From the IMG/VR virus record IMGVR_UViG_3300025674_000063, positions 1-51,504 of that record: a stretch of 51,504 bases of DNA. The stretch is one strand, 5' to 3'. This stretch comes from a virus. This document shows, piece by piece, positions 2,850 to 49,849 of the stretch (positions are counted from its first letter, which is position 1; the number at the start of each line of letters is the position of its first letter). The position numbers were made by a program, and so were the translations under genes. The notes below the pieces were generated by a model. The model made no database searches and was not told the origin of the DNA. It saw only the letters and a program-made list of their open reading frames with translations.

Positions 2850-3187
2850 GTTTTTTCCAGTCAGATATTATTCGTGGAGACATCCAAGAGATGATGGACC
2901 TCCAGCAGTTCTGTTTTAGATCTGCCATGAACTTTGTTCTTCTCGATGACGAGAGGAAGATGGAATACTTTGAGAAACTTGAACTGTTGATTGAGAAGCA
3001 GAAGACTTTCTACTTCCGTATTAAGTTGAGTGACGATCCTGAAGCAGTCTCTGTCCTAGAGACCATGAAGCAGGGTATTATTATGCTTGGTGCCACCCCA
3101 GGCACCACCGTCGAAGAGATGTTCGACGAACTGCTGCAGAAAGTCCAGTTCATGAAGGACAAACTGCGTAGTGGCACAGGGGGTTGA
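2846..3187 (+). CDS. DUF1825 family protein
   Basis: 113 residues, ATGA overlap with the previous gene. The sequence (SFFQSDIIRGDIQEMMDLQQ, helical throughout, ending in a KVQFMKDKLRSG helix) is a clear DUF1825 member, a family nearly restricted to cyanobacteria and their phages. Function unknown; predicted all-alpha and cytoplasmic. Its stop codon TGA (3185-3187) lies inside the -35 hexamer TTGACG of the promoter for gp32, so the last codons also carry regulatory sequence. Confidence 0.8.
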   Translation: MSFFQSDIIRGDIQEMMDLQQFCFRSAMNFVLLDDERKMEYFEKLELLIEKQKTFYFRIKLSDDPEAVSVLETMKQGIIMLGATPGTTVEEMFDELLQKVQFMKDKLRSGTGG

Positions 3188-3234
3188 CGCCCGACCCTGT
3201 GCCCTTGTATAATGACTGAGTGATAGGGCATCAC
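3168..3234 (+). promoter_or_regulatory. gp32 promoter, member of a repeated cassette
   Basis: Sigma-70 type promoter: -35 TTGACG at 3184-3189, 18-nt spacer, -10 TATAAT at 3208-3213. The -35 lies in the loop of a hairpin whose arms are GGCACAGGG (3173-3181) and CCCTGTGCC (3195-3203). GTAGTGGCA (3168-3176) ends exactly 31 nt before the -10, as the related 9-mer does before several small genes at 45-49 kb. A short dyad GTGAT/ATCAC (3220-3234) lies in the leader. The consensus boxes are strong, so this is very likely the gp32 promoter; the shared cassette is inference. Confidence 0.85.
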
Positions 3235-3268
3235 ACAAACCAAATCCAAACTAATCCGAGAAAATCCT

Positions 3269-4172: not shown

Positions 4173-4180
4173 TCTAAATA
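4173..4180 (+). promoter_or_regulatory. Possible T4-type late promoter
   Basis: TCTAAATA followed by TACGG, one mismatch class away from the T4 late consensus TATAAATA. It precedes the outer-membrane-like gene at 4249 but also the terminator 4185-4213, so a transcript from here would have to pass that hairpin. Weak call. Confidence 0.35.
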
Positions 4181-4184
4181 TACG

Positions 4185-4213
4185 GACCTCTGTTATAATA
4201 CAGAGGTCTTTTT
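4185..4213 (+). terminator. gp32 rho-independent terminator with TATAAT loop
   Basis: Perfect 9-bp stem GACCTCTGT / ACAGAGGTC with a 6-nt loop that reads TATAAT, then five T. It lies 46 nt after the gp32 stop. The loop equals a -10 consensus, but no good -35 is placed 16-18 nt upstream, so the promoter reading is uncertain. Confidence 0.88.
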
Positions 4214-4248
4214 AATGACACACAAACCCTACTCAAAGGAAAAAACAA

Positions 4249-9491: not shown

Positions 9492-12400
9492 TGGCAGGAT
9501 ATTCAACAACATATTCTGGGGACCTTACCACAACGATCGCTGGTAAGTTATATGCTGCTGTCAAAAAGCGTATTGAAAAAAATAGAGACAAAGCGGACGA
9601 AGAAAAAGAAGAATTGAAGTCTGCTACTAAAGAAGCAGAATCTAAAGTAATAACACCAACACCAACACCTGTCACCGACAAGTCTGGACGACAGTATGTG
9701 TCAAGAATGCTTGGAGGTGGTGTTGTATTGAAAATGATACAGCTTGAGTCAAAGGCAGCTCAGAACTTGCAGAGCATTAATGAAATTAAAGCGATTACTG
9801 CTCAAAACAATAAATTAATTGTAGATCACAATGAAATGTTGCTTGGCAAGCTTGATGCCTTGCTTGACATATATCAAAAAAAATTAGCACACGATAAAAA
9901 ACTTGCTGATGACGCCGAAACCGTCAATGCGAGTGGATCTGGCGGAGGAGCTGGTACAGCAGGGTATGTAAATAACATTCTCAAGAGACCTAAAAGTGTT
10001 GTTGGAAATCTTATTAAAGATTTACTCCTAAGAAGAGCAAAGTCTGCTATTGGTAGGGTGATACCCAGAAGACTGAGAGCAAGAGCCAGACTATTTGCTA
10101 GGGGACCACTTGGCAGGAGAATAGCACCCCTTGCTAGGGCAGCATTGAGACCTAGGGCAGCAGCAAAAACCGCACTAGTTAATTACGCAAAGCAGGGTGC
10201 AAAAAGATATGGTCTAAAATTTGGTACTAAAGCATTAGGAAAGACAGCTCTAAAGTCTGCTGGTAAAAAACTTCCATTTGGTATCGGTCTTGGTATTTCT
10301 GCAGTATTTGCAGCACAAAGACTATTTCAAAAACCACCCGATCCAATGGGTGCAGCATTGGAACTGGCATCTGGGGCAGCAGCATTTGTTCCTGGTGTTG
10401 GTACTGCTGCATCTTTGGCAATTGATGCTGGCATTGCAGCTAGAGACGCGACCAAAGATACTCAGAAATATGAAACAGGCACAGGATTAACTAAGAGAGG
10501 TCTCGCAATCCTCCACGGTACGGAACGAGTTGATAGAGTTGATCCTAAAACAGGACTGGCAACCAGTTTGATTGAATCATCTGGAAGTCAACTTGTGTCT
10601 GTAGCGATGAAATATGCGAGAGATGCTAAAGTAGATAATCATATTCTTCCAGAGGTTTCTAGATTACCATTTAAAATAGTAAATATTCCATTTTCTACTG
10701 GAATTAAAAGAAGTAAGTTAAAAACAACATCAACTGCGTTCTTTAAGAAATCTGATCAAAAATTATCTGCAGATACTGATTTTCGTACAGCAGAAGAAGC
10801 AGATGATGATACAACTCGCGGTAATAATGACCCAAGTCAAAGACCCAGGACTTTTATTGAAACGGCCTTAGAGATATTTAAACCTAAACCCCGTGGCGGA
10901 GGCGGTCAGCCTAGACTAACACAAAGAATTGGAAGTCAATCTCAAATTTGGAATAAAAATTTACCTGCTAATGCGGTTACATATGACCCTGCTCAGGGAA
11001 TTGATGCAAGCGGCGAACCTGGAGTTGACTTTAGTTATAATAACATCTATAAAAATTACGCGGCATTTGATGGTGAAGTTGTATCTGTGGGTCCGATCGC
11101 AGGCGCTTCTGGATATGGAGAATCTGTTGTTATTAGAAGTACAGATCCTTTCGAACCTTCAAGAAAATTTGATGCACTATATGCACACTTTGCTCCTGGA
11201 ACTGCAACAGTAGCTCCTGGACAAAAAGTTTCTGCAGGTGAGTACATAGGTCCAGTTGGATGGTTAGGACAATGGCCTGGCGGTAGTGCCGCGCCAGGTG
11301 CTGGTAGTATGCGTGGTCCACACACAAGTTTGGACTTTTTTGAACCAGATTCCGCCGCTGCGGCAAAAAATTACCGTAGATTGCAAAGATATATGCTTGA
11401 TCTGGAAGGAAAAGTTCCTCCATCAAAGCCTACGATTAAAGCATCTGGTAATAATGGAAACATTGGGGGACGCCCAAATGTTGATCAACCTAGTATGCCC
11501 AATTTGATCGCAGGATATGGATTGAGACCAGATGGAACTTCTGGAAATAATAAGCCTGGTGATACTAATAGGGGTCATGATGGAACTGAATATAAATTGG
11601 TTCCTAGACCTGGATATGGATATAATCAATGGGTTCCTATCAAAACAGCTTCTGCTAATACGCCAATGGTTGGTCGTGGAAGAACAGGTGGATCTCCTCG
11701 CAAGCCCCCAAAGGTTAGTGATAAAGATTTTGCCGCTTTAGTTGCAATATCTTCCTTGGAGGGTATAGGTGATCAGTCTAGAGTTGATGTAGCACAGTCT
11801 ATTATGAATAGACTTGGGGATGGTACATATGGCAGCACTCTTTTCAGTGTTATTACTGCAGATGCTCAATATCAACCAGCATATATCGATCCAAATGTAT
11901 CAAGCGGACCTGGAACAAAAACATCTCCAGAATGGAAGGCAATCACAGACAAAAAATCTGCTATTGCAGCAATGCAATCATATTATTGGAGAAGATATAA
12001 AAAACGTATTTCTTACAAGGAAATGCTAAATTTGTATGAGTCTACTCTTGCTGCAATGAAAAATCCCCTACTGCAAGCAGCAGCTGCTAAAAAACTTGGT
12101 GGAAGAACTGAATTTCTTGCAGGTGAAGTTAAGGGTTCTGATGTTGTTAGAAGAGAGGGTTATGGACATAATTCTTACTTTGCTGAGTATGGCAGTGGAA
12201 ATCAGTTATCTAGGGGTGCTATGCCATTTCCACAGAGACTTATTTCAAAACCAAAACCAAAACCCAGTCCAAATCCAACTCCTTCAAATCCAAAACGACC
12301 TTTCAGTTGGTGGGATTTTTTCACTGGCGGCAATCGATCAAGCATTCAATCTCAACAATTAATGGCATCAAGTGCAGATAATGAGTCTATTGAAGAAGGT

Positions 12401-24082: not shown

Positions 24083-24133
24083 AGCAACGGTTTTGTAAAC
24101 CGTAGGTCGTCGGTTCAAGTCCGACTTGTGGCT
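24060..24133 (+). tRNA. tRNA-Thr (TGT)
   Basis: 74 nt. Acceptor GCCACTA / TTGTGGC (one T-T mismatch), D-arm GCTC AGCTGGATA GAGC, anticodon stem ACGGT / ACCGT with loop TTTGTAA (anticodon TGT), T-arm GTCGG TTCAAGT CCGAC, discriminator T. CCA not encoded. Overlaps the 3' end of the second cpeT-like gene. Confidence 0.92.
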
Positions 24134-24151
24134 TTCTCTCTTTTGAGAGAA
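24134..24151 (+). other. Hairpin between tRNA-Thr and tmRNA
   Basis: Perfect 7-bp stem TTCTCTC / GAGAGAA with TTTT loop. Probably a processing boundary between the tRNA and the tmRNA acceptor piece; could belong to the tmRNA precursor. Confidence 0.5.
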
Positions 24152-24405
24152 TAGGTGACGCCACCTACATTTCGGACAGGGGTTCGATTCCCCTCACCTC
24201 CATGCGAGGGGGTGCCATGGTTTCGACGGGGTATAAGGAGCGTGACTGAAACCTGCTTGGATAAGCACCCAATAGATGCAAACACATCTGACACCGCAGC
24301 GAATAACATCGTTGCATTCTCCCGCAGCACCGTTGCTGCCTGAAGGGGAGATGGGGGATAAGTCATCCTTCTTAACCAAATGACTCATTAGGGGTGGAAT
24401 GCCCC
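24152..24405 (+). ncRNA. ssrA: Circularly permuted two-piece tmRNA (ssrA)
   Basis: Acceptor piece first: hairpin TAGGTG/CACCTA (24152-24167), the diagnostic CATTTCGGAC (24168-24177), T-arm AGGGG TTCGATT CCCCT (24178-24194), CACCTCC acceptor strand (24195-24201), A73. After only 5 nt (TGCGA) the coding piece begins with GGGGGTG (24208-24214), complementary to the acceptor strand with one G-T, then CCATGGTTTCGACGGGG, the universal tmRNA 5' motif. A tag frame (24299-24343) and hairpins including AGATG/CATCT and GGGG/CCCC (24391-24405) follow. This is the permuted layout used by marine cyanobacteria. It would rescue stalled ribosomes and tag products. Outer ends are approximate; CCA is not encoded. 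Confidence 0.88.
24299..24343 (+). other. tmRNA proteolysis tag reading frame
   Basis: GCG resume codon to TGA encodes ANNIVAFSRSTVAA. Cyanobacterial tags known to me (for example ANNIVRFSRHAAPVAA in marine Synechococcus) share the ANNIV-FSR core and the VAA end; the phage tag is two residues shorter. The preceding codon GCA would add one more Ala if used. Confidence 0.85.
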
Positions 24406-24409
24406 TTTT

Positions 24410-24482
24410 GGGGAATTAGCTCAGTTGGTAGAGCACCTGCTTTGCAAGCAGGCTGTCAGGAGTTCGAGTCTCCTATTCTCCA
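24410..24482 (+). tRNA. tRNA-Ala (TGC)
   Basis: 73 nt. Acceptor GGGGAAT / ATTCTCC, D-arm GCTCAGTTGGTAGAGC, anticodon stem CCTGC / GCAGG with loop TTTGCAA (anticodon TGC), T-arm CAGGAG TTCGAGT CTCCT, discriminator A. CCA not encoded. Begins 4 nt after the last tmRNA hairpin. Confidence 0.93.
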
Positions 24483-45043: not shown

Positions 45044-45223
45044 ATGAACAGTCCTACAAAAAGTGAATTGATGCATTTGCAACTCCAAGCGATGCTGAGA
45101 GAGAATTCATTCCCCGAAGATGAATTGAAGTATCTTGGTGAGGAAGATGGAGAGCATTGGTATCTCGTAGCAGGTGAGCATAGGGTGCCAGTGACTCAGA
45201 TTGAGGAAGTCAATCCAGTTTGA
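45044..45223 (+). CDS. Small hypothetical protein (59 aa)
   Basis: ATG 45044 to TGA 45223, MNSPTKSELMHLQLQAML... ending IEEVNPV. Acidic, with a helix then a small beta segment (HWYLVAGEHRVPV). Too short for family assignment. Its stop lies within the inverted repeat CAGTT-TGAG-AACTG that starts the next regulatory cassette. Confidence 0.55.
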   Translation: MNSPTKSELMHLQLQAMLRENSFPEDELKYLGEEDGEHWYLVAGEHRVPVTQIEEVNPV

Positions 45224-45280
45224 GAACTGTCCATCCCACCCCCAGGCGGGATGGTTTTGCCCTTATACTACTAAGGTAGT
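45216..45280 (+). promoter_or_regulatory. Repeated regulatory cassette, copy A
   Basis: Perfect inverted repeat CAGTT-TGAG-AACTG (45216-45229); 9-mer GAACTGTCC (45224-45232); hairpin CCATCCC/GGGATGG with TTTT (45231-45258); -10 TATACT at 45264-45269, exactly 31 nt after the 9-mer; dyad ACTAC-TAAG-GTAGT (45267-45280) over the -10. No consensus -35, which suggests an activator. Confidence 0.65.
45231..45258 (+). terminator. Terminator inside cassette A
   Basis: 7-bp stem CCATCCC / GGGATGG, loop of 10, then TTTT. Sits 7 nt after the 59-residue gene. Confidence 0.7.
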
Positions 45281-45294
45281 CAAGGGAACGACCC

Positions 45295-45450
45295 ATGATC
45301 ACTGACAACACGGAAACCAAGCAACTTCGCCGCCAGATTCTCAACAGTATCGAATCATACGACATTGAGTTGCTGAAGCGTATTGCTTACGAGTGCCGTT
45401 GTGAAGAATACGGCATCTATCCTGACCACACCTACACTTCTCTCGCCTGA
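45295..45450 (+). CDS. Small hypothetical protein (51 aa)
   Basis: ATG 45295 behind cassette A; MITDNTETKQLRRQILNSIE... ending YTSLA. Helical with a CRC pair. Stop TGA overlaps the next ATG (TGATG). Early small gene; function unknown. Confidence 0.6.
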   Translation: MITDNTETKQLRRQILNSIESYDIELLKRIAYECRCEEYGIYPDHTYTSLA

Positions 45451-45614
45451 TGATGACTAAAGCACAAATCCTCAAGGTTGTGAAGACTACGGCAGTTCCC
45501 TACTGCCTCACCCGCGAAGAAAAGTTCCAAGTTTTTATCAATGTGTGTGATAACATGTTGAATGAAGGACGCATCACTCTTGCTCAACACGATCGCTGGA
45601 CCAATGTTTTCTAA
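45450..45614 (+). CDS. Small hypothetical protein (54 aa)
   Basis: ATG 45450 or 45453 to TAA 45614: MMTKAQILKVVKTTAVPYCL... ending DRWTNVF. Basic N-terminal helix, then TREEKFQVFINVCDNMLNEG, reminiscent of small EF-like helical proteins without a clear match. Overlaps the next gene by 11 nt. Confidence 0.55.
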   Translation: MMTKAQILKVVKTTAVPYCLTREEKFQVFINVCDNMLNEGRITLAQHDRWTNVF

Positions 45615-45750
45615 AGAAGATCTTGAGTTTGTTGATTTTCTTTTCGGCAAACTCCTCACTCACACCGACACTGATATGATTGACCTACAGGATGATGATT
45701 CCTGTGATGACCACATTCGATTCGAACAACTGTCTCTGCTAGAAGTATGA
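45604..45750 (+). CDS. Small acidic hypothetical protein (48 aa)
   Basis: ATG 45604 is preferred over 45562, which would overlap the previous gene by 53 nt. MFSKEDLEFVDFLFGKLL... with a DLQDDDSCDD acidic stretch. Stop overlaps the next start (ATGA). Confidence 0.5.
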   Translation: MFSKEDLEFVDFLFGKLLTHTDTDMIDLQDDDSCDDHIRFEQLSLLEV

Positions 45751-46028
45751 CACAAGGCACGCTCCCTCCTCGACACACACTCACAGTTCGTGAGTATGCT
45801 GCTCTGGAACCATTTTACAAAGCACAACGCCCTCACGATGATGTGATGACATGGAGGCAACTTCGTGCTGCTGGTGCCAAACCTAAACCCAAAGAAGATC
45901 CTGCACTCAAATTCGTTTGCGTAGCATTCAATACAGCATACGGTGCAGAACTAGACTATTCTAAAGTAGAAAACAAACCCAAGAAAGAAGAACCCACTCC
46001 CGCTGACTCACATGCCACTGACTGCTGA
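45747..46028 (+). CDS. Hypothetical protein (93 aa)
   Basis: Starts at an ATGA overlap. LTVREYAALEPFYKAQRPHDD, TWRQLRAAGAKPKPKED, and a Lys/Glu/Pro-rich C-terminal tail. No family recognised. Overlaps the putative endonuclease gene by 17 nt, so all of 45295-47351 reads as one unit. Confidence 0.55.
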   Translation: MTQGTLPPRHTLTVREYAALEPFYKAQRPHDDVMTWRQLRAAGAKPKPKEDPALKFVCVAFNTAYGAELDYSKVENKPKKEEPTPADSHATDC

Positions 46029-46632
46029 ACAAGGTTACAAAATCCGCGAAGAATACTCTGACATCAAAGAGAAAGCAGTCTGTGATGCTCATGGACTGAC
46101 TCAAGTTGGTGGATCACGCACTAAGATTGATGGTCAGAGTGGTGATGTTCGCAAGAGCATCAAGAATGCTAGCGGCACTTCTACCCAGGTGCATCTAACC
46201 ACACAAAAACATTTTATGGAAACCCTAGGCATTACTGGGTTGTCCGCTGCATTTATTCGTCATTTCTGTGGCAACGCGGAGTATGATTACAATGGTAAGG
46301 ATCGTCGCACCATCAAAGAGATTGATCCTGCTCAGGTAGAGGCATTCAAGCAATTCCTTGATGCCAACAAAGAGAAGATTGTTGATCTGATCATTCGTAA
46401 TGGTGATGACATTACTCATGTAGTATACAACCACATGCCAACTCAAGAGTATGAGTTGACCTATCAGGAGATCCTTGATAAGATTAAGGATGCAGAGTGG
46501 AAATTCTTGAGTGGGGGTGTACACCTCAAACTTGGTAGTAAGACTCTGTTTCACTTCCAGCGTGAGGGTAAAAAATCCAAATCCAACCGCTATAATGTTC
46601 TCTGGCACATTCATCTCAACCTGTTTGTATGA
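46012..46632 (+). CDS. Possible restriction-type endonuclease (206 aa)
   Basis: Overlaps the downstream DNA methyltransferase by 4 nt (ATGA), the arrangement expected of a restriction-modification pair. The region KIDGQSGDVRKSIKNASGTS (residues 38-57) has Asp residues, then K48-S-I-K51, and STQVHLTTQKHFMETLGI; a D-x(n)-x-I-K pattern of this type occurs in the PD-(D/E)XK cores of some type II enzymes. This is pattern-level evidence only. It could instead be a methylation-linked protein of other function. C-terminus is basic (HFQREGKKSKSNRY). Confidence 0.45.
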   Translation: MPLTAEQGYKIREEYSDIKEKAVCDAHGLTQVGGSRTKIDGQSGDVRKSIKNASGTSTQVHLTTQKHFMETLGITGLSAAFIRHFCGNAEYDYNGKDRRTIKEIDPAQVEAFKQFLDANKEKIVDLIIRNGDDITHVVYNHMPTQEYELTYQEILDKIKDAEWKFLSGGVHLKLGSKTLFHFQREGKKSKSNRYNVLWHIHLNLFV

Positions 46633-47351
46633 TTATCAATAAAGACTGTATCGAAGGTATGCGTGAGTTGGATGACAACTCTATTGATTGTATCATCACA
46701 TCTCCTCCATACAACAAGAAAGGTCTGCTTGGTAATGTTAAGCGTGGTAATCAGATCTGGGGTAAGTTTAACATTGATTATTCTACCTACGGTGATGATA
46801 TGCCAGAGGAAGAGTATCAGGCATGGATGGTAGCATTCTTGAATGAGTGTCACAGGGTGATCAAAGATGATGGTAGCATCTTCTTCAATCACAAACCACG
46901 ACGACACAAGAATAGATGCTACCTGCCTACAGATTTCATTGCACATAGTGATGCACAACTGTATCAACTTATCATCTGGGACAGACGCAACTCACCTAAC
47001 ATTCGCAATGATATTCTAGTGCCATGCACTGAACACATCTATTGGTTCTGTAAAAAGAAACCCAAGGTGTTTCGTGATGCTGTTGACCCACAGTATCGTG
47101 GTGAAGTATGGGTGATTCCACCTGACCGCCAGAAGCAGCATCCTGCCCCCTTCCCTGAGCAGTTGGTACGCAACTGCATCCAACTCACTACAGAGGCATC
47201 AGAGACGGTCCTAGACCCCTTTCTGGGGTCAGGCACCACTGCCCTGGTGGCGCAGTCGCTGGATCGTAAGTGGATGGGGTTCGAGATTGATGAAGAATAC
47301 ATTAAGATTGCTGCACAACGCACCAAATCTAGTTTATTATCGTTTACATAG
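46629..47351 (+). CDS. DNA N6-adenine/N4-cytosine methyltransferase
   Basis: 240 residues. Motif order is that of beta-class amino-methyltransferases: catalytic TSPPY (residues 24-28) first, then the SAM-binding motif DPFLGSGTTALVAQSLDRKW and GFEIDEEY near the C-terminus. MPEEEYQAWMVAFLNECHRVIKDDGSIFFNH matches the family between these motifs. TSPPY occurs in both N4-cytosine and N6-adenine enzymes, so the target base is open. Phage MTases usually protect phage DNA from host restriction; the partner at 46012 raises the possibility of an active restriction system. Confidence 0.9.
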   Translation: MIINKDCIEGMRELDDNSIDCIITSPPYNKKGLLGNVKRGNQIWGKFNIDYSTYGDDMPEEEYQAWMVAFLNECHRVIKDDGSIFFNHKPRRHKNRCYLPTDFIAHSDAQLYQLIIWDRRNSPNIRNDILVPCTEHIYWFCKKKPKVFRDAVDPQYRGEVWVIPPDRQKQHPAPFPEQLVRNCIQLTTEASETVLDPFLGSGTTALVAQSLDRKWMGFEIDEEYIKIAAQRTKSSLLSFT

Positions 47352-47362
47352 TATTACCACGC

Positions 47363-47368
47363 TAGACT
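47363..47368 (+). promoter_or_regulatory. Weak -10-like element before 47372
   Basis: TAGACT within the palindrome TAG-A-CTA (47363-47369), like the -10 of the cassette at 48803. Only 4 nt before the ATG and without the 9-mer at the cassette spacing, so low confidence. Confidence 0.25.
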
Positions 47369-47371
47369 ACC

Positions 47372-47554
47372 ATGGATTACCAAAAACACGATAAGCGTAG
47401 AGATGCCCTTGGTCTCTTCTACGAGAGTGTCCTAAAACCAGATCCAGAGTTGCGCCAGTGTGCTCATAACCAAGAATGTTTCCATGAGTTGATGGAATGG
47501 CGCTCTGAAGTGCTAGAATACCTTGACCGTCGCCGTAATGAGGAGTTTAACTAA
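47372..47554 (+). CDS. Small hypothetical protein (60 aa)
   Basis: MDYQKHDKRRDALGLFYESV..., charged helical, ends RRRNEEFN. One-base stop/start overlap (TAATG) with the next gene. No family recognised. Confidence 0.6.
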   Translation: MDYQKHDKRRDALGLFYESVLKPDPELRQCAHNQECFHELMEWRSEVLEYLDRRRNEEFN

Positions 47555-47862
47555 TGACTGACTGGAAAGCAGAGTATGCACGACAGCGTAAAGATCGCCT
47601 AGCAGACACGCTTAATGAATATCTTGAGGATGACGAAGTTAGTGTCCTTCTGTTCTATAATGATTTGAAGGATGAGATTAACGAGATCATCAAATATCAT
47701 GATAAGCGTAAAGCAAATGCTACTGCAGCGATGGAATTGATCATGGGTCATCGTCCAGTTAATTTAGATGACGAACCAGTTGACAAACCCAACTCATATG
47801 AGTATGCTGCACACATCACCATGAGTGACATCGCTAAGTTCAACAAAGGATCTACTCTATGA
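47554..47862 (+). CDS. Hypothetical protein (102 aa)
   Basis: Helical N-terminal two thirds (DWKAEYARQRKDRLADTLNE, LLFYNDLKDEINEIIKYHDK). No recognised domain. ATGA overlap with the next gene. Genes of this size and charge are typical of the early accessory region of cyanomyoviruses. Confidence 0.6.
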   Translation: MTDWKAEYARQRKDRLADTLNEYLEDDEVSVLLFYNDLKDEINEIIKYHDKRKANATAAMELIMGHRPVNLDDEPVDKPNSYEYAAHITMSDIAKFNKGSTL

Positions 47863-48029
47863 ATCGTTACCGCATCCTCTGGAAGCGTTTGAAGAAACCA
47901 GGATACTCTGCACAACAGCAAGTTGTGATGTATGATCTGGATGACATTGCACATTTCATTAAACATTTGGAGAAGGATCCGAAGGTAACAGGTGCTATTG
48001 ATGTGGTGCCGTGTCTCGGGGACAGTTGA
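47859..48029 (+). CDS. Small hypothetical protein (56 aa)
   Basis: ATG 47859 to TGA 48029: MNRYRILWKRLKKPGYSAQQ..., VVMYDLDDIAHFIKHLEKDP, ends VVPCLGDS. Beta-alpha-beta-like arrangement. Its stop lies in the inverted repeat beginning cassette C. Confidence 0.58.
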   Translation: MNRYRILWKRLKKPGYSAQQQVVMYDLDDIAHFIKHLEKDPKVTGAIDVVPCLGDS

Positions 48030-48088
48030 AGAAGTGTCACAGGGGGTCGTCAGACCCCTTTTCCATGCTGTATGATTACAAGGTAATC
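48023..48088 (+). promoter_or_regulatory. Repeated regulatory cassette, copy C
   Basis: Imperfect repeat CAGTT-GAAG-AAGTG (48023-48036); 9-mer GAAGTGTCA (48031-48039); hairpin GGGGTC-GTCA-GACCCC with TTTT (48043-48062); -10 TATGAT at 48071-48076, exactly 31 nt after the 9-mer; dyad GATTAC-AAG-GTAATC (48074-48088). The start of the hairpin region (GTGTCACAGGGGGT) closely matches the gp32 copy (GTGGCACAGGGGGT). Confidence 0.68.
48043..48062 (+). terminator. Terminator inside cassette C
   Basis: Perfect 6-bp G/C-rich stem GGGGTC/GACCCC, tetraloop GTCA, then TTTT, 13 nt after the preceding stop. Confidence 0.8.
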
Positions 48089-48099
48089 GAGAGACACCA

Positions 48100-48339
48100 A
48101 TGCAACTCCAAACCTCTGCCCTTCAGATCGACTTCTACCCTGTCGCTGGTGGCAAGCGTTTTGTTAAGCGTATCATCTGGCACCCCACTGAAGAACTCTC
48201 TCAGATGACTTCTTTCACCACTCGTGTCAAGTCTGACGCTCTCTACGACATCCGTCAGTATCTCGCCAACGGTGCTGAGGTCACTGATTTCAACACTGAA
48301 GCATATGCTGGCAAAGATTACTCCCCCGTGTACTGCTGA
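48100..48339 (+). CDS. Small hypothetical protein (79 aa)
   Basis: Behind cassette C. Beta-rich start (LQTSALQIDFYPVAGGKRFV), then ELSQMTSFTTRVKSDALYDIRQYLANGAEV. GC-rich host-like codons suggest high expression. No family recognised. TGATG coupling to the next gene. Confidence 0.65.
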   Translation: MQLQTSALQIDFYPVAGGKRFVKRIIWHPTEELSQMTSFTTRVKSDALYDIRQYLANGAEVTDFNTEAYAGKDYSPVYC

Positions 48340-48620
48340 TGATTGATTTTCCACATGTCCCGCCTAAAGGATACTCTTACGAATATGACACTCCCTCTCG
48401 TGGTGTTGTTCGTATTTGGATTGTTAACCATTATCAATTTAGTTACACTTCCGAGCAAGTTAAATCCATCTGGGGATTCTACAAACCTAAAACAAAAAAA
48501 TACTACGCACCTATCAACTCAATCAAAGTAGGAGATATGGTTGACATTCAGGATACCACACCCTATAGTGCTATGCAGATACTTAAACCACTCAAACCAT
48601 CTGTGCTTCAATTTCTATGA
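48339..48620 (+). CDS. Hypothetical protein (93 aa)
   Basis: Tyr-rich beta protein: GYSYEYDTPSRGVVRIWIVN, QVKSIWGFYKPKTKKYYAP, INSIKVGDMVDI. The middle suggests a small all-beta fold. No family recognised. Overlaps the next gene by 4 nt. Confidence 0.62.
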   Translation: MIDFPHVPPKGYSYEYDTPSRGVVRIWIVNHYQFSYTSEQVKSIWGFYKPKTKKYYAPINSIKVGDMVDIQDTTPYSAMQILKPLKPSVLQFL

Positions 48621-48799
48621 CCATGAAACATGTTGACATTACTCTCAGTGAGGCAGAACTTAAGTTTCTGATTGACTTGATGTGGGGTGCTCCGATTTCT
48701 ATTGTAAAGAATACAGCAGATCGGCATGGCATCCACGATTATGACCTGGAAGGACACCTTGCAAAGTGTCTGGGATACATGTATTTGGGCAACGACTGA
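48617..48799 (+). CDS. Small hypothetical protein (60 aa)
   Basis: MTMKHVDITLSEAELKFLID..., with two helices and a HGIHDYDLEGHLAKCLG segment. The LSEAELKFLIDLM helix is common in small phage regulators, but no family is recognised. Its 3' end contains the 9-mer AAAGTGTCT of cassette I. Confidence 0.58.
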   Translation: MTMKHVDITLSEAELKFLIDLMWGAPISIVKNTADRHGIHDYDLEGHLAKCLGYMYLGND

Positions 48800-48810
48800 C
48801 CTTAGACTAA
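48763..48810 (+). promoter_or_regulatory. Repeated regulatory cassette, copy I
   Basis: 9-mer AAAGTGTCT (48763-48771) inside the preceding gene, 31 nt, then -10 TAGACT (48803-48808) within the palindrome TTAG-A-CTAA (48802-48810). No terminator hairpin in this copy. Confidence 0.5.
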
Positions 48811-48831
48811 CCAAGTAACCAACGCAAACCA

Positions 48832-49002
48832 ATGAACGACGCTTTCAATTTCTACTCCACGACCGATGATGTTATGCTTGATCGTAAATTGCTTGAATTG
48901 CTCGACAGTCAAGAGATGGACTTCGAAGATGACATCATGGATCTGAATGATCGTTGGTCTCATGAGGAACTATCTGCTGAAGTTCGATCGATTTTGTTCT
49001 GA
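48832..49002 (+). CDS. Small acidic hypothetical protein (56 aa)
   Basis: ATG 48832 to TGA 49002: MNDAFNFYSTTDDVMLDRKL... ending VRSILF. Very acidic (DFEDDIMDLNDR), helical; could be a DNA mimic or polymerase-binding peptide, but that is speculation. Confidence 0.55.
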   Translation: MNDAFNFYSTTDDVMLDRKLLELLDSQEMDFEDDIMDLNDRWSHEELSAEVRSILF

Positions 49003-49004
49003 TC

Positions 49005-49160
49005 ATGTCTAAAAATCCTATGCTTTATGTCTTATTTGTGCTGGTTGCCATGACATCCATGAAAATGGTATATCAGGGAGAGAGTAAGATTGAACAGATG
49101 GAGCGTCTTGCTCGCGTCTGTGCCACACTACCACAACCACACCCTGACTGTGCCAGTTGA
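49005..49160 (+). CDS. Small membrane protein (51 aa)
   Basis: ATG 49005 to TGA 49160. One N-terminal hydrophobic segment (MLYVLFVLVAMTSMKMV) then a polar tail with CATLPQPHPDCAS. Single-pass inner-membrane protein. Stop lies inside the inverted repeat of cassette B. Confidence 0.58.
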   Translation: MSKNPMLYVLFVLVAMTSMKMVYQGESKIEQMERLARVCATLPQPHPDCAS

Positions 49161-49218
49161 GGAACTGTCCCACGAGGCGCTGGACTTGCTCTGATCTGCC
49201 CTATACTGATTACATCAG
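49154..49218 (+). promoter_or_regulatory. Repeated regulatory cassette, copy B
   Basis: Perfect inverted repeat CAGTT-GAGG-AACTG (49154-49167); 9-mer GAACTGTCC (49162-49170), identical to copy A; 31 nt; -10 TATACT (49202-49207); dyad CTGAT-TAC-ATCAG (49206-49218). The leader GAGGGACACCACCC before ATG resembles copies A and C. Confidence 0.68.
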
Positions 49219-49233
49219 CGAGGGACACCACCC

Positions 49234-49446
49234 ATGACCTACTCACACTACCGCATCGAGATCGACATGCCTGAGACCGAGATCCCCATCGTGTATTTCC
49301 GTAAGGTCAAGCGTTGCACCACTGCCAAGGGCATGGATCGTCAGCACAATCGTATGGTGAACGAGGCATGTGATGCCTGGCGTCAGTATGACTTCAAGCG
49401 TCTCACCGTGTCCCGTGTGCCAGCTAGCGAAGTGGTCCCTGCCTGA
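49234..49446 (+). CDS. Small hypothetical protein (70 aa)
   Basis: Behind cassette B, with AGGGA upstream. Beta then helix: HYRIEIDMPETEIPIVYFRK, MDRQHNRMVNEACDAWRQYD. GC-rich codons. No family recognised. The last codons carry the 9-mer-like GAAGTGGTC of cassette D. Confidence 0.62.
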   Translation: MTYSHYRIEIDMPETEIPIVYFRKVKRCTTAKGMDRQHNRMVNEACDAWRQYDFKRLTVSRVPASEVVPA

Positions 49447-49483
49447 CCCACAGGCACTCATTTCACCCTATACTGATCTCAGT
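49429..49483 (+). promoter_or_regulatory. Repeated regulatory cassette, copy D
   Basis: GAAGTGGTC (49429-49437) ends 31 nt before -10 TATACT (49469-49474). Hairpin GCCTG/CAGGC (49441-49455) lies between, and palindrome ACTGA-TC-TCAGT (49472-49483) covers the -10. CACCCTATACT matches the sequence before other -10 boxes of the set. Confidence 0.5.
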
Positions 49484-49495
49484 TCAGACAACGAC

Positions 49496-49849
49496 ATGAC
49501 CACCACCTTCGCCCAGTTCGCTTCCGAGCAAACCGCCCGCAACACCATTTACCTTAACATTGTTAAGTATGGTATGATGCTGTGTGATGCTCTCCAGCAA
49601 GATGCTCCTGATGGTTATCACTACTCCCTGGACTCTTCTGGTCGTAAGTATCACAAAGTCTTCATGCACATTGGTGATCGCCGCGATAGCATCCACGCTT
49701 TCATTGATAAAACGACTGGTGAAGTGTACAAACCTGCTAGCATCAAAGCACCTGCTAAAGGTGTTCGTTACAATCTCCTGATCATGAGCGAGCGCGAAGA
49801 GATGCTTGAGAAGTGTGACTGGTCGGGTGGTTATCTGTACATGCGTTGA
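49496..49849 (+). CDS. Hypothetical protein (117 aa)
   Basis: ATG 49496, after cassette D; longer starts cross the promoter. Two-part protein: helix SEQTARNTIYLNIVKYGMML, then strands YHKVFMHIGDRRDSIHAFID and KTTGEVYKPASIKAPAKGVR. The last motif is familiar from small proteins conserved in marine cyanomyoviruses, function unknown. Its stop overlaps the -35 of the next promoter. Confidence 0.65.
   Translation: MTTTFAQFASEQTARNTIYLNIVKYGMMLCDALQQDAPDGYHYSLDSSGRKYHKVFMHIGDRRDSIHAFIDKTTGEVYKPASIKAPAKGVRYNLLIMSEREEMLEKCDWSGGYLYMR

What the first reader, a model, noticed from the sequence alone, without database searches (positions are those of the whole stretch)
45216..49483. Repeated regulatory cassette before small early genes, shared with gp32
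Six sites show a 9-mer close to GAASTGTCM ending exactly 31 nt before a -10 hexamer: 45224 (GAACTGTCC, TATACT), 48031 (GAAGTGTCA, TATGAT), 48763 (AAAGTGTCT, TAGACT), 49162 (GAACTGTCC, TATACT), 49429 (GAAGTGGTC, TATACT) and 3168 before gp32 (GTAGTGGCA, TATAAT). In copies A and B the 9-mer is half of a perfect repeat CAGTT-N4-AACTG that holds the upstream stop codon. A short dyad covers the -10 in most copies. Most lack a consensus -35. Fixed phasing over nearly three helical turns suggests an activator or sigma-modifying phage protein, a functional analogue of T4 MotA but with a different site.
Basis: seen in the sequence. Interest (0 to 1): 0.82.

Follow-up and report, generated by a model that had tools for sequence, protein, structure and literature searches.

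The report
Palindrome-driven promoter cassettes of T4-like cyanophages
Small genes in this marine cyanobacterial virus, and in most of its relatives tested, are preceded by a 22-letter DNA palindrome at a fixed distance from a simple polymerase start signal, which looks like the docking site of an unidentified activator protein that switches those viral genes on.

Summary
The window is a 51.5-kb fragment of a T4-like Synechococcus cyanophage. The 9-mer is the right half-site of a 22-bp dyad, GKGMCASTT-N4-AASTGKCMC, centred near -53 and 33-36 nt (mode 34) upstream of a sigma70 -10 box that usually lacks a good -35. Five of the six sites belong; gp32 does not (canonical TTGAC-17/18-TATAAT). Within the window the 9-mer alone is barely above chance. 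Across relatives the evidence is overwhelming: leave-one-gene-family-out tests recover the dyad in 87/114 homologous upstream regions at distances 33-36 only, with none in shuffles. Seven T4-like cyanophage genomes carry 7-28 copies each (null at most 1.6); T4, KVP40, T7-like cyanophages and Ma-LMM01 carry none above chance. Cyanobacterial genomes show no regulon. The arms vary independently, so it is a DNA site, not an RNA hairpin. Sequence upstream of the dyad is unrelated between copies, so cassettes sit at gene-shuffling junctions. Best explanation: operator of a dimeric activator, probably phage-supplied, driving the small-gene block. It is probably the 'novel regulatory element' for early genes of phage Syn9 (Doron 2016, recalled; text not available). 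The activator is unidentified.

The parts
45212..45233 (+). Site A dyad AATCCAGTTTGAGAACTGTCCA (perfect core CAGTT-N4-AACTG); upstream stop codon TGA at 45221-45223 inside it
   Evidence: score 26.9, distance 34
45231..45258 (+). Terminator-like hairpin CCATCCC-N10-GGGATGG with TTTT, lying between dyad A and its -10
   Evidence: read directly; the loop is too long for the terminator scan
45264..45269 (+). -10 box TATACT of promoter A (followed by dyad ACTACTAAGGTAGT)
45295..45450 (+). Gene A, 51 aa, phrog_24220, unknown function
   Evidence: dyad in 6/11 homologous upstream regions
48019..48040 (+). Site B dyad GGGACAGTTGAAGAAGTGTCAC
   Evidence: score 33.0, distance 34
48043..48062 (+). Terminator-like hairpin GGGGTC-GTCA-GACCCC with TTTT between dyad B and its -10
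   Evidence: read directly
48071..48076 (+). -10 box TATGAT of promoter B (followed by dyad GATTAC-AAG-GTAATC)
48100..48339 (+). Gene B, 79 aa, phrog_500, unknown function
   Evidence: dyad in 36/46 homologous upstream regions
48751..48772 (+). Site C dyad AGGACACCTTGCAAAGTGTCTG, the weakest copy; relatives carry the stronger GGACACTTGGTAAAGTGTCT in a homologous upstream gene end
   Evidence: score 17.1; homologous strong copies in L516/L518
48803..48808 (+). -10 box TAGACT of promoter C
48832..49002 (+). Gene C, 56 aa; only one (identical) relative found in IMG/VR
49150..49171 (+). Site D dyad GTGCCAGTTGAGGAACTGTCCC, the best copy; relatives encode VPVEELS here
   Evidence: score 36.5, distance 34
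49202..49207 (+). -10 box TATACT of promoter D (followed by CTGATTACATCAG)
49234..49446 (+). Gene D, 70 aa, phrog_5495, unknown function
   Evidence: dyad in 12/16 homologous upstream regions
49417..49438 (+). Site E dyad GTGCCAGCTAGCGAAGTGGTCC, inside the 3' end of gene D
   Evidence: score 25.4, distance 34
49469..49474 (+). -10 box TATACT of promoter E (followed by CTGATCTCAG)
49496..49849 (+). Gene E, 117 aa, Pfam DUF7717 / phrog_818, homologous to S-PM2 T4-GC 68
   Evidence: dyad in 33/41 homologous upstream regions
3184..3213 (+). gp32 promoter, NOT a member: TTGACG (3184-3189), 18-nt spacer, TATAAT (3208-3213); the -35 lies in the loop of hairpin GGCACAGGG/CCCTGTGCC (3173-3181/3195-3203)

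Best explanation
Each site is a compact promoter cassette of T4-like cyanophages. A 22-bp palindrome (GKGMCASTT-N4-AASTGKCMC) centred near -53 is bound by a dimeric activator, which recruits host sigma70-type RNA polymerase, most simply through the alpha C-terminal domain or sigma region 4, to a -10 box 33-36 nt downstream that has no or a poor -35. In many copies the spacer holds the intrinsic terminator of the upstream gene, so one cassette ends one transcript and starts the next. The cassettes serve the hypervariable block of small genes and sit at gene-shuffling junctions. Shown by sequence: the dyad, its phasing, its lineage restriction, the independence of its arms, and the loss of homology at the dyad. 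Inferred: that a protein binds and activates, that the protein is phage-supplied (virion-delivered or made very early) rather than a host factor, and that the genes are early.
For: Leave-one-family-out recovery A 6/11, B 36/46, D 12/16, E 33/41 at distances 33-36 only, null 0; gp32 2/48. Genome scans: S-RSM4 14, S-PM2 26, P-HM2 11, S-WAM2 20, P-SSM2 28, S-CRM01 20, Syn9 7 (hits counted per strand), null 0-1.6; T4 0. Distance histogram 36 at d=34 against 0.9 expected. Of 94 strong palindromes, 62 have a -10 at 33-36 on at least one side and only 3 on both; chance is 2.8% per side. IMG/VR: 62 of 72 strict palindromes have the -10; cellular genomes 6 of 32. T7-like Syn5 and P-SSP7, and Ma-LMM01, have none. 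No host regulon: no strict hit titled as marine Synechococcus or Prochlorococcus, and at most 2 sites per genome in 390 cyanobacteria. Arm pairing equals shuffled pairing.
Against: No transcript, binding or infection data were available here. No helix-turn-helix protein was recognised among the non-T4 core proteins tested. About a third of strong palindromes genome-wide lack a strong -10; some lie inside genes such as nrdA. A quarter of cassettes keep a partial -35, so some may fire without an activator. A repressor binding the same site cannot be excluded from sequence.
Confidence: 0.75

Rival explanations
1. A host-encoded transcription factor binds the dyad; the phages have adopted a host operator to get immediate early transcription (a variant of the activator model that differs in where the factor comes from).
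For: Early genes need a factor present at infection; the recalled Doron 2016 abstract places a novel element before early genes. Cyanobacterial genomes show a slight excess of the palindrome (28 sites against about 12 for the reversed control; 7 of 31 strict cellular hits are cyanobacteria).
Against: No multi-site regulon in 390 cyanobacterial genomes; no strict site titled as marine Synechococcus or Prochlorococcus; absent from T7-like cyanophages Syn5 and P-SSP7, although Syn5 shares Synechococcus hosts. Lineages S-TIM5 and S-CREM2 have cassettes with altered dyad wings, and S-TIM5 shares host WH8102 with Syn9, which suggests a phage-borne factor.
Confidence: 0.25
2. The dyad is a repressor operator (shut-off of early genes or superinfection control), not an activator site.
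For: Fixed spacing and dyad symmetry are compatible with repression by looping or contact; many cyanobacterial promoters work with -10 alone; a second dyad overlaps the -10/start in a third of copies.
Against: A repressor would normally overlap -35 to +20; at -53 it leaves the core promoter free. A 33-36 nt window with a sharp mode at 34 and -35 poverty is typical of activation.
Confidence: 0.12
3. The palindrome is an RNA hairpin (terminator or processing site of the upstream mRNA) and its distance to -10 is incidental.
For: It lies at the end of upstream genes, often over the stop codon; many spacers are hairpin-prone (34% fold below -8 kcal/mol).
Against: Arms do not covary (Watson-Crick pairing equal to shuffled at all five variable pairs); no U-tract follows the palindrome; the distance to -10 is sharply fixed.
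Confidence: 0.04
4. Primarily a recombination cassette like the T4 PeSL elements; the shared sequence is kept because it mediates gene shuffling rather than for regulation.
For: Homology between copies ends at the dyad: 60 nt upstream are 27-29% identical, against 71-76% in the first 60 nt of the gene, for families B and E.
Against: Pure homology would not keep both half-sites plus an exact 34-nt phase while the spacer sequence is free; shuffling is a consequence of, not an alternative to, promoter function.
Confidence: 0.08

Closest known systems
'Novel regulatory element' of early genes in Syn9 and P-TIM40 (Doron et al. 2016, ISME J 10:1437; doi 10.1038/ismej.2015.210)
   Same: From memory of the abstract: an early-gene regulatory element, conserved and abundant in T4-like cyanophages. 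The Syn9 copies found here sit before small genes gp61-gp90.
   Different: Identity unverified: the paper is not in the held library. Dyad anatomy, phasing and lineage limits are derived independently here.
P2/186/P4 Ogr-Delta activated late promoters (from memory)
   Same: Dyad centred near -55, -10 without -35, small phage-encoded activator.
   Different: Sequence (TGT-N12-ACA) differs; late genes of temperate phages; no Ogr-type zinc finger found here.
T4 middle promoters and MotA/AsiA (PMC2988021)
   Same: Phage element plus host -10, -35 replaced.
   Different: The MotA box is a monomer site centred at -30, 12 bp from -10; T4-like cyanophages lack motA and asiA (PMC2984593, PMC5780444); T4 has none of these dyads.
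PeSL promoter-terminator cassettes of T4-type phages (Arbiol 2010; Comeau 2014, cited in PMC4503421)
   Same: Terminator plus promoter between hypervariable small genes; junctions of gene shuffling.
   Different: PeSLs are recalled as ordinary early promoters without an upstream dyad; PMC4503421 found few PeSL-like features in the S-PM2 ORFanage, whereas this cassette is dense there.
Mu Mor/C activated promoters (from memory)
   Same: Dimeric activator on a dyad just upstream of a -35-less promoter.
   Different: Dyad lies closer to the start; different sequence; no homologue sought.

Membership tests
T4-like cyanophage dyad promoter class (as defined here) | 22-bp dyad GKGMCASTT-N4-AASTGKCMC | tested here: met
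   Five window sites; site C weak
T4-like cyanophage dyad promoter class (as defined here) | -10 hexamer 33-36 nt downstream of AASTG | tested here: met
   All five at 34
T4-like cyanophage dyad promoter class (as defined here) | gp32 promoter belongs to it | tested here: not met
   2/48 relatives carry the dyad; TTGAC-17/18-TATAAT conserved
T4 middle (MotA) promoters | MotA box centred at -30, 12+/-1 bp from -10 | tested here: not met
   Dyad centre about -53; consensus unrelated (PMC2988021)
T4 middle (MotA) promoters | motA and asiA encoded | not tested
   Literature says cyanomyoviruses lack them (PMC2984593)
Syn9 early regulatory element (Doron 2016) | Same motif sequence | not testable with these tools
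   Paper not held
Syn9 early regulatory element (Doron 2016) | Present upstream of Syn9 small genes and conserved in T4-like cyanophages | tested here: met
   that these are the early genes was not tested
PeSL cassettes | Terminator stem-loop plus promoter at junctions of gene shuffling | tested here: inconclusive
   Junction behaviour met; terminator present in many but not all copies (site D has none)
P2 Ogr-type promoters | Dyad near -55, no -35 | tested here: met
   Centre -53.5 at the modal distance; -35 poor
P2 Ogr-type promoters | Ogr/Delta zinc-finger activator | tested here: inconclusive
   No such family among the core proteins scanned; phrog_385 'transcriptional regulator' is the only annotated candidate
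Host sigma70 promoters | TTGACA -35 at 16-18 nt | tested here: not met
   Only 26/110 sites match 4 or more of 6

The most novel reading that the evidence does not exclude
T4-like cyanophages carry an activator, packaged in the virion or made first, whose dimeric operator defines their early promoters. Its DNA specificity has diverged between lineages (standard cyanophages, S-TIM5, S-CREM2), and the operator-terminator-promoter cassette is the exchange unit of the small-gene block.
Probability: 0.3. Interest if true: 0.8.

Novelty: new member of a known kind. Interest (0 to 1): 0.58.

Why it matters
T4-like cyanophages are among the commonest ocean viruses and lack the T4 Alt, MotA and AsiA machinery, so how they seize host transcription has been left open (PMC2984593 reports that sigma70-like early promoters could not be found in S-RSM4). 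A precise 22-bp operator at a fixed phase, present 7-28 times per genome and absent from hosts and T7-like cyanophages, gives a bait for finding the activator, a way to predict takeover genes from sequence alone, and an explanation for shuffling of the small-gene block.

Tried and rejected
Rejected: gp32 as a member. RNA-hairpin reading (arms do not covary). Genes next to the palindrome in Nostoc, Calothrix and other cyanobacteria as a clue to a host factor: no consistent gene. Exact 15-mer CCAGTTGAGGAACTG in IMG/VR: at least 120 hits, about chance level for that length, uninformative alone. Bidirectional promoters, suspected from weak -10 boxes on both sides in P-SSM2, vanish with a stricter -10 (3 of 94). 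Phylogenetic-profile hunt for the activator (core families, and families missing from S-CREM2) gave no DNA-binding candidate beyond phrog_385. Whether the large element-bearing contigs without T4 capsid, portal or polymerase genes are other virus types was not resolved. Whole-genome analysis of the window's own phage was impossible, since the record is the 51.5-kb fragment. Literature searches did not yield the text of Doron 2016 or the PeSL papers.
Full report
WHAT THE WINDOW IS. The 51,504-bp window is itself the whole IMG/VR record. It matches 108 phage records, all Synechococcus phages or cyanophages, and carries T4-like genes. The finding concerns the block of small genes at 45-50 kb.

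CHECK OF THE OBSERVATION. At all six positions the 9-mer ends exactly 31 nt before the stated hexamer. On its own this is not strong. In the window, 9-mers within one mismatch give 3 hits at distance 31 (0.7 expected, maximum 3 in 40 shuffles); within two mismatches, 9 hits against 6.5 expected. Homologues rescue the claim.

THE REAL UNIT. Upstream regions of homologues of gene B (48100) and gene E (49496) show an inverted repeat, of which the 9-mer is the right half. In the fetched contigs, 330 CASTT-N4-AASTG matches (about 165 sites counted on both strands) show -10-like hexamers at 101 counts at distance 34, 27 at 33, 24 at 35 and 16 at 36, against 5.4 expected per distance. From 110 non-redundant sites the consensus is GKGMCASTT-N4-AASTGKCMC, with distance 34 in 64, 33 in 20, 35 in 20 and 36 in 6, and -10 TATAMT (core letters are fixed by the search pattern, wings and -10 positions 3-5 much less so). 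At distance 34 the dyad centre is about -53.5 if transcription starts 7 nt after the -10; the start site is assumed, not mapped.

UNBIASED TESTS. Models trained on other gene families recover the dyad in 6/11 (A), 36/46 (B), 12/16 (D) and 33/41 (E) homologous upstream regions, with distances only 33-36 although 28-43 was allowed, and none in shuffles; gp32 gave 2/48. Site C has only one relative, but its sequence is homologous to stronger dyads in L516 and L518. Whole genomes: S-RSM4 14, S-PM2 26, P-HM2 11, S-WAM2 20, P-SSM2 28, freshwater S-CRM01 20, Syn9 7, nulls 0-1.6, T4 0; these are per-strand hits, so a palindrome with a weak -10 on both sides counts twice. A simple pattern agrees and finds nothing above its reversed control in T4, KVP40, P-SSP7, Syn5 and Ma-LMM01, nor in S-CBS2, Pelagibacter phage HTVC008M and S-CREM2. 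Of 94 strong palindromes in seven genomes, 62 have a strong -10 at 33-36 nt on at least one side (chance 2.8% per side), only 3 on both.

VIRAL, NOT HOST. Of 72 distinct viral sites, 62 have the phased -10; of 32 cellular sites, 6 do. In 390 cyanobacterial genomes with one mismatch allowed there are 28 sites against about 12 for the reversed control, never more than two per genome: no host regulon.

DNA SITE, NOT RNA. At each variable arm pair, Watson-Crick pairing equals that of shuffled partners. A dimeric protein tolerating changes in either half explains this; an RNA stem does not.

PROMOTER ANATOMY. TTGACA-like -35 elements (4 or more of 6) occur in 26 of 110 sites against about 9 expected: poor but not absent. 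The spacer often holds a terminator-like hairpin (sites A and B by inspection); upstream stop codons fall inside the dyad at A, B and D. A second dyad over the -10/start (arms of at least 5 bp) occurs in 33% against 1% and is unexplained. Sequence upstream of the dyad is unrelated between copies (27-29% identity) while the gene start is 71-76% identical for B and E, so cassettes are shuffling junctions. In S-PM2, PMC4503421 recognised one host-like promoter and two stem-loops near this region; the present scan finds about 11 cassettes in the first 23 kb, including one at 11348-11369 directly beside the stem-loop reported at 11369-11391.

gp32. Its promoter is ordinary: TTGAC invariant and TATNAT present in 17 of 17 aligned relatives. 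The -35 lies in the loop of an inverted repeat whose arms change together between relatives, which explains the chance resemblance of GTAGTGGCA to the half-site.

MECHANISM. A dyad one helical turn upstream of the usual class II activator position, fixed to a -10 with poor -35, points to an activator contacting RNA polymerase. Shown: site, phase, lineage restriction. Inferred: binding, activation, early timing, phage origin of the factor. Phage origin is favoured because hosts lack the regulon, T7-like phages lack the site, and S-TIM5 and S-CREM2 carry cassettes with altered wings (few sites, suggestive only). No DNA-binding protein was recognised among non-T4 core proteins; phrog_385, annotated 'transcriptional regulator' (Syn9 gp230), is the only named candidate.

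KNOWN OR NEW. From memory, Doron et al. 2016 reported a novel regulatory element before early genes of Syn9, conserved in T4-like cyanophages; this is probably it, but the paper is not held. PMC2984593 states that sigma70-like early promoters were not found in S-RSM4; 14 dyad promoters are found there now. The window is therefore filed as a new member of a known kind, with anatomy and distribution added here.

Noticed in passing
window 24113-24434: Cyanobacterial-type tmRNA gene inside the phage (Rfam RF01851, 171 bits; tag ANTSDTAANNIVAFSRSTVAA) beside tRNA-Thr, tRNA-Ala and tRNA-Asn; similar DNA in S-CAM1, S-CAM3, S-SSM7 and Sf-FS3, where listed features under it include hypothetical proteins and tRNAs but no tmRNA.
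   Followed up: partly
window 3219-3268: gp32 leader: conserved hairpin GTGATAGGGCATCAC followed by a T/G-poor repeat leader CAAACCAAATCCAAACTAATCCGAG, conserved in relatives; a candidate gp32 autogenous operator like that of T4.
   Followed up: partly
window 3173-3203: The gp32 -35 hexamer lies in the loop of an inverted repeat whose arms change together across relatives, an overlapping hairpin/promoter.
   Followed up: partly
window 45264-45285, 48071-48088, 49202-49215: Second dyad over the -10 and start region (for example TTAC-AAG-GTAA), in a third of copies; possible second operator.
   Followed up: partly
S-CREM2 (L642-L650) and S-TIM5 (L659-L667): Same cassette layout but diverged dyad wings and arms, hinting at changed activator specificity.
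   Followed up: partly
L403, L413, L440, L463: Dyad placed before a promoter that also has TTGAC and a T4-type late box TATAAATA; possible dual early/late promoter.
   Followed up: no
window 4174-4215: Terminator after gp32 whose loop is TATAAT (ACCTCTGT-TATAAT-ACAGAGGT-CTTTTT).
   Followed up: no
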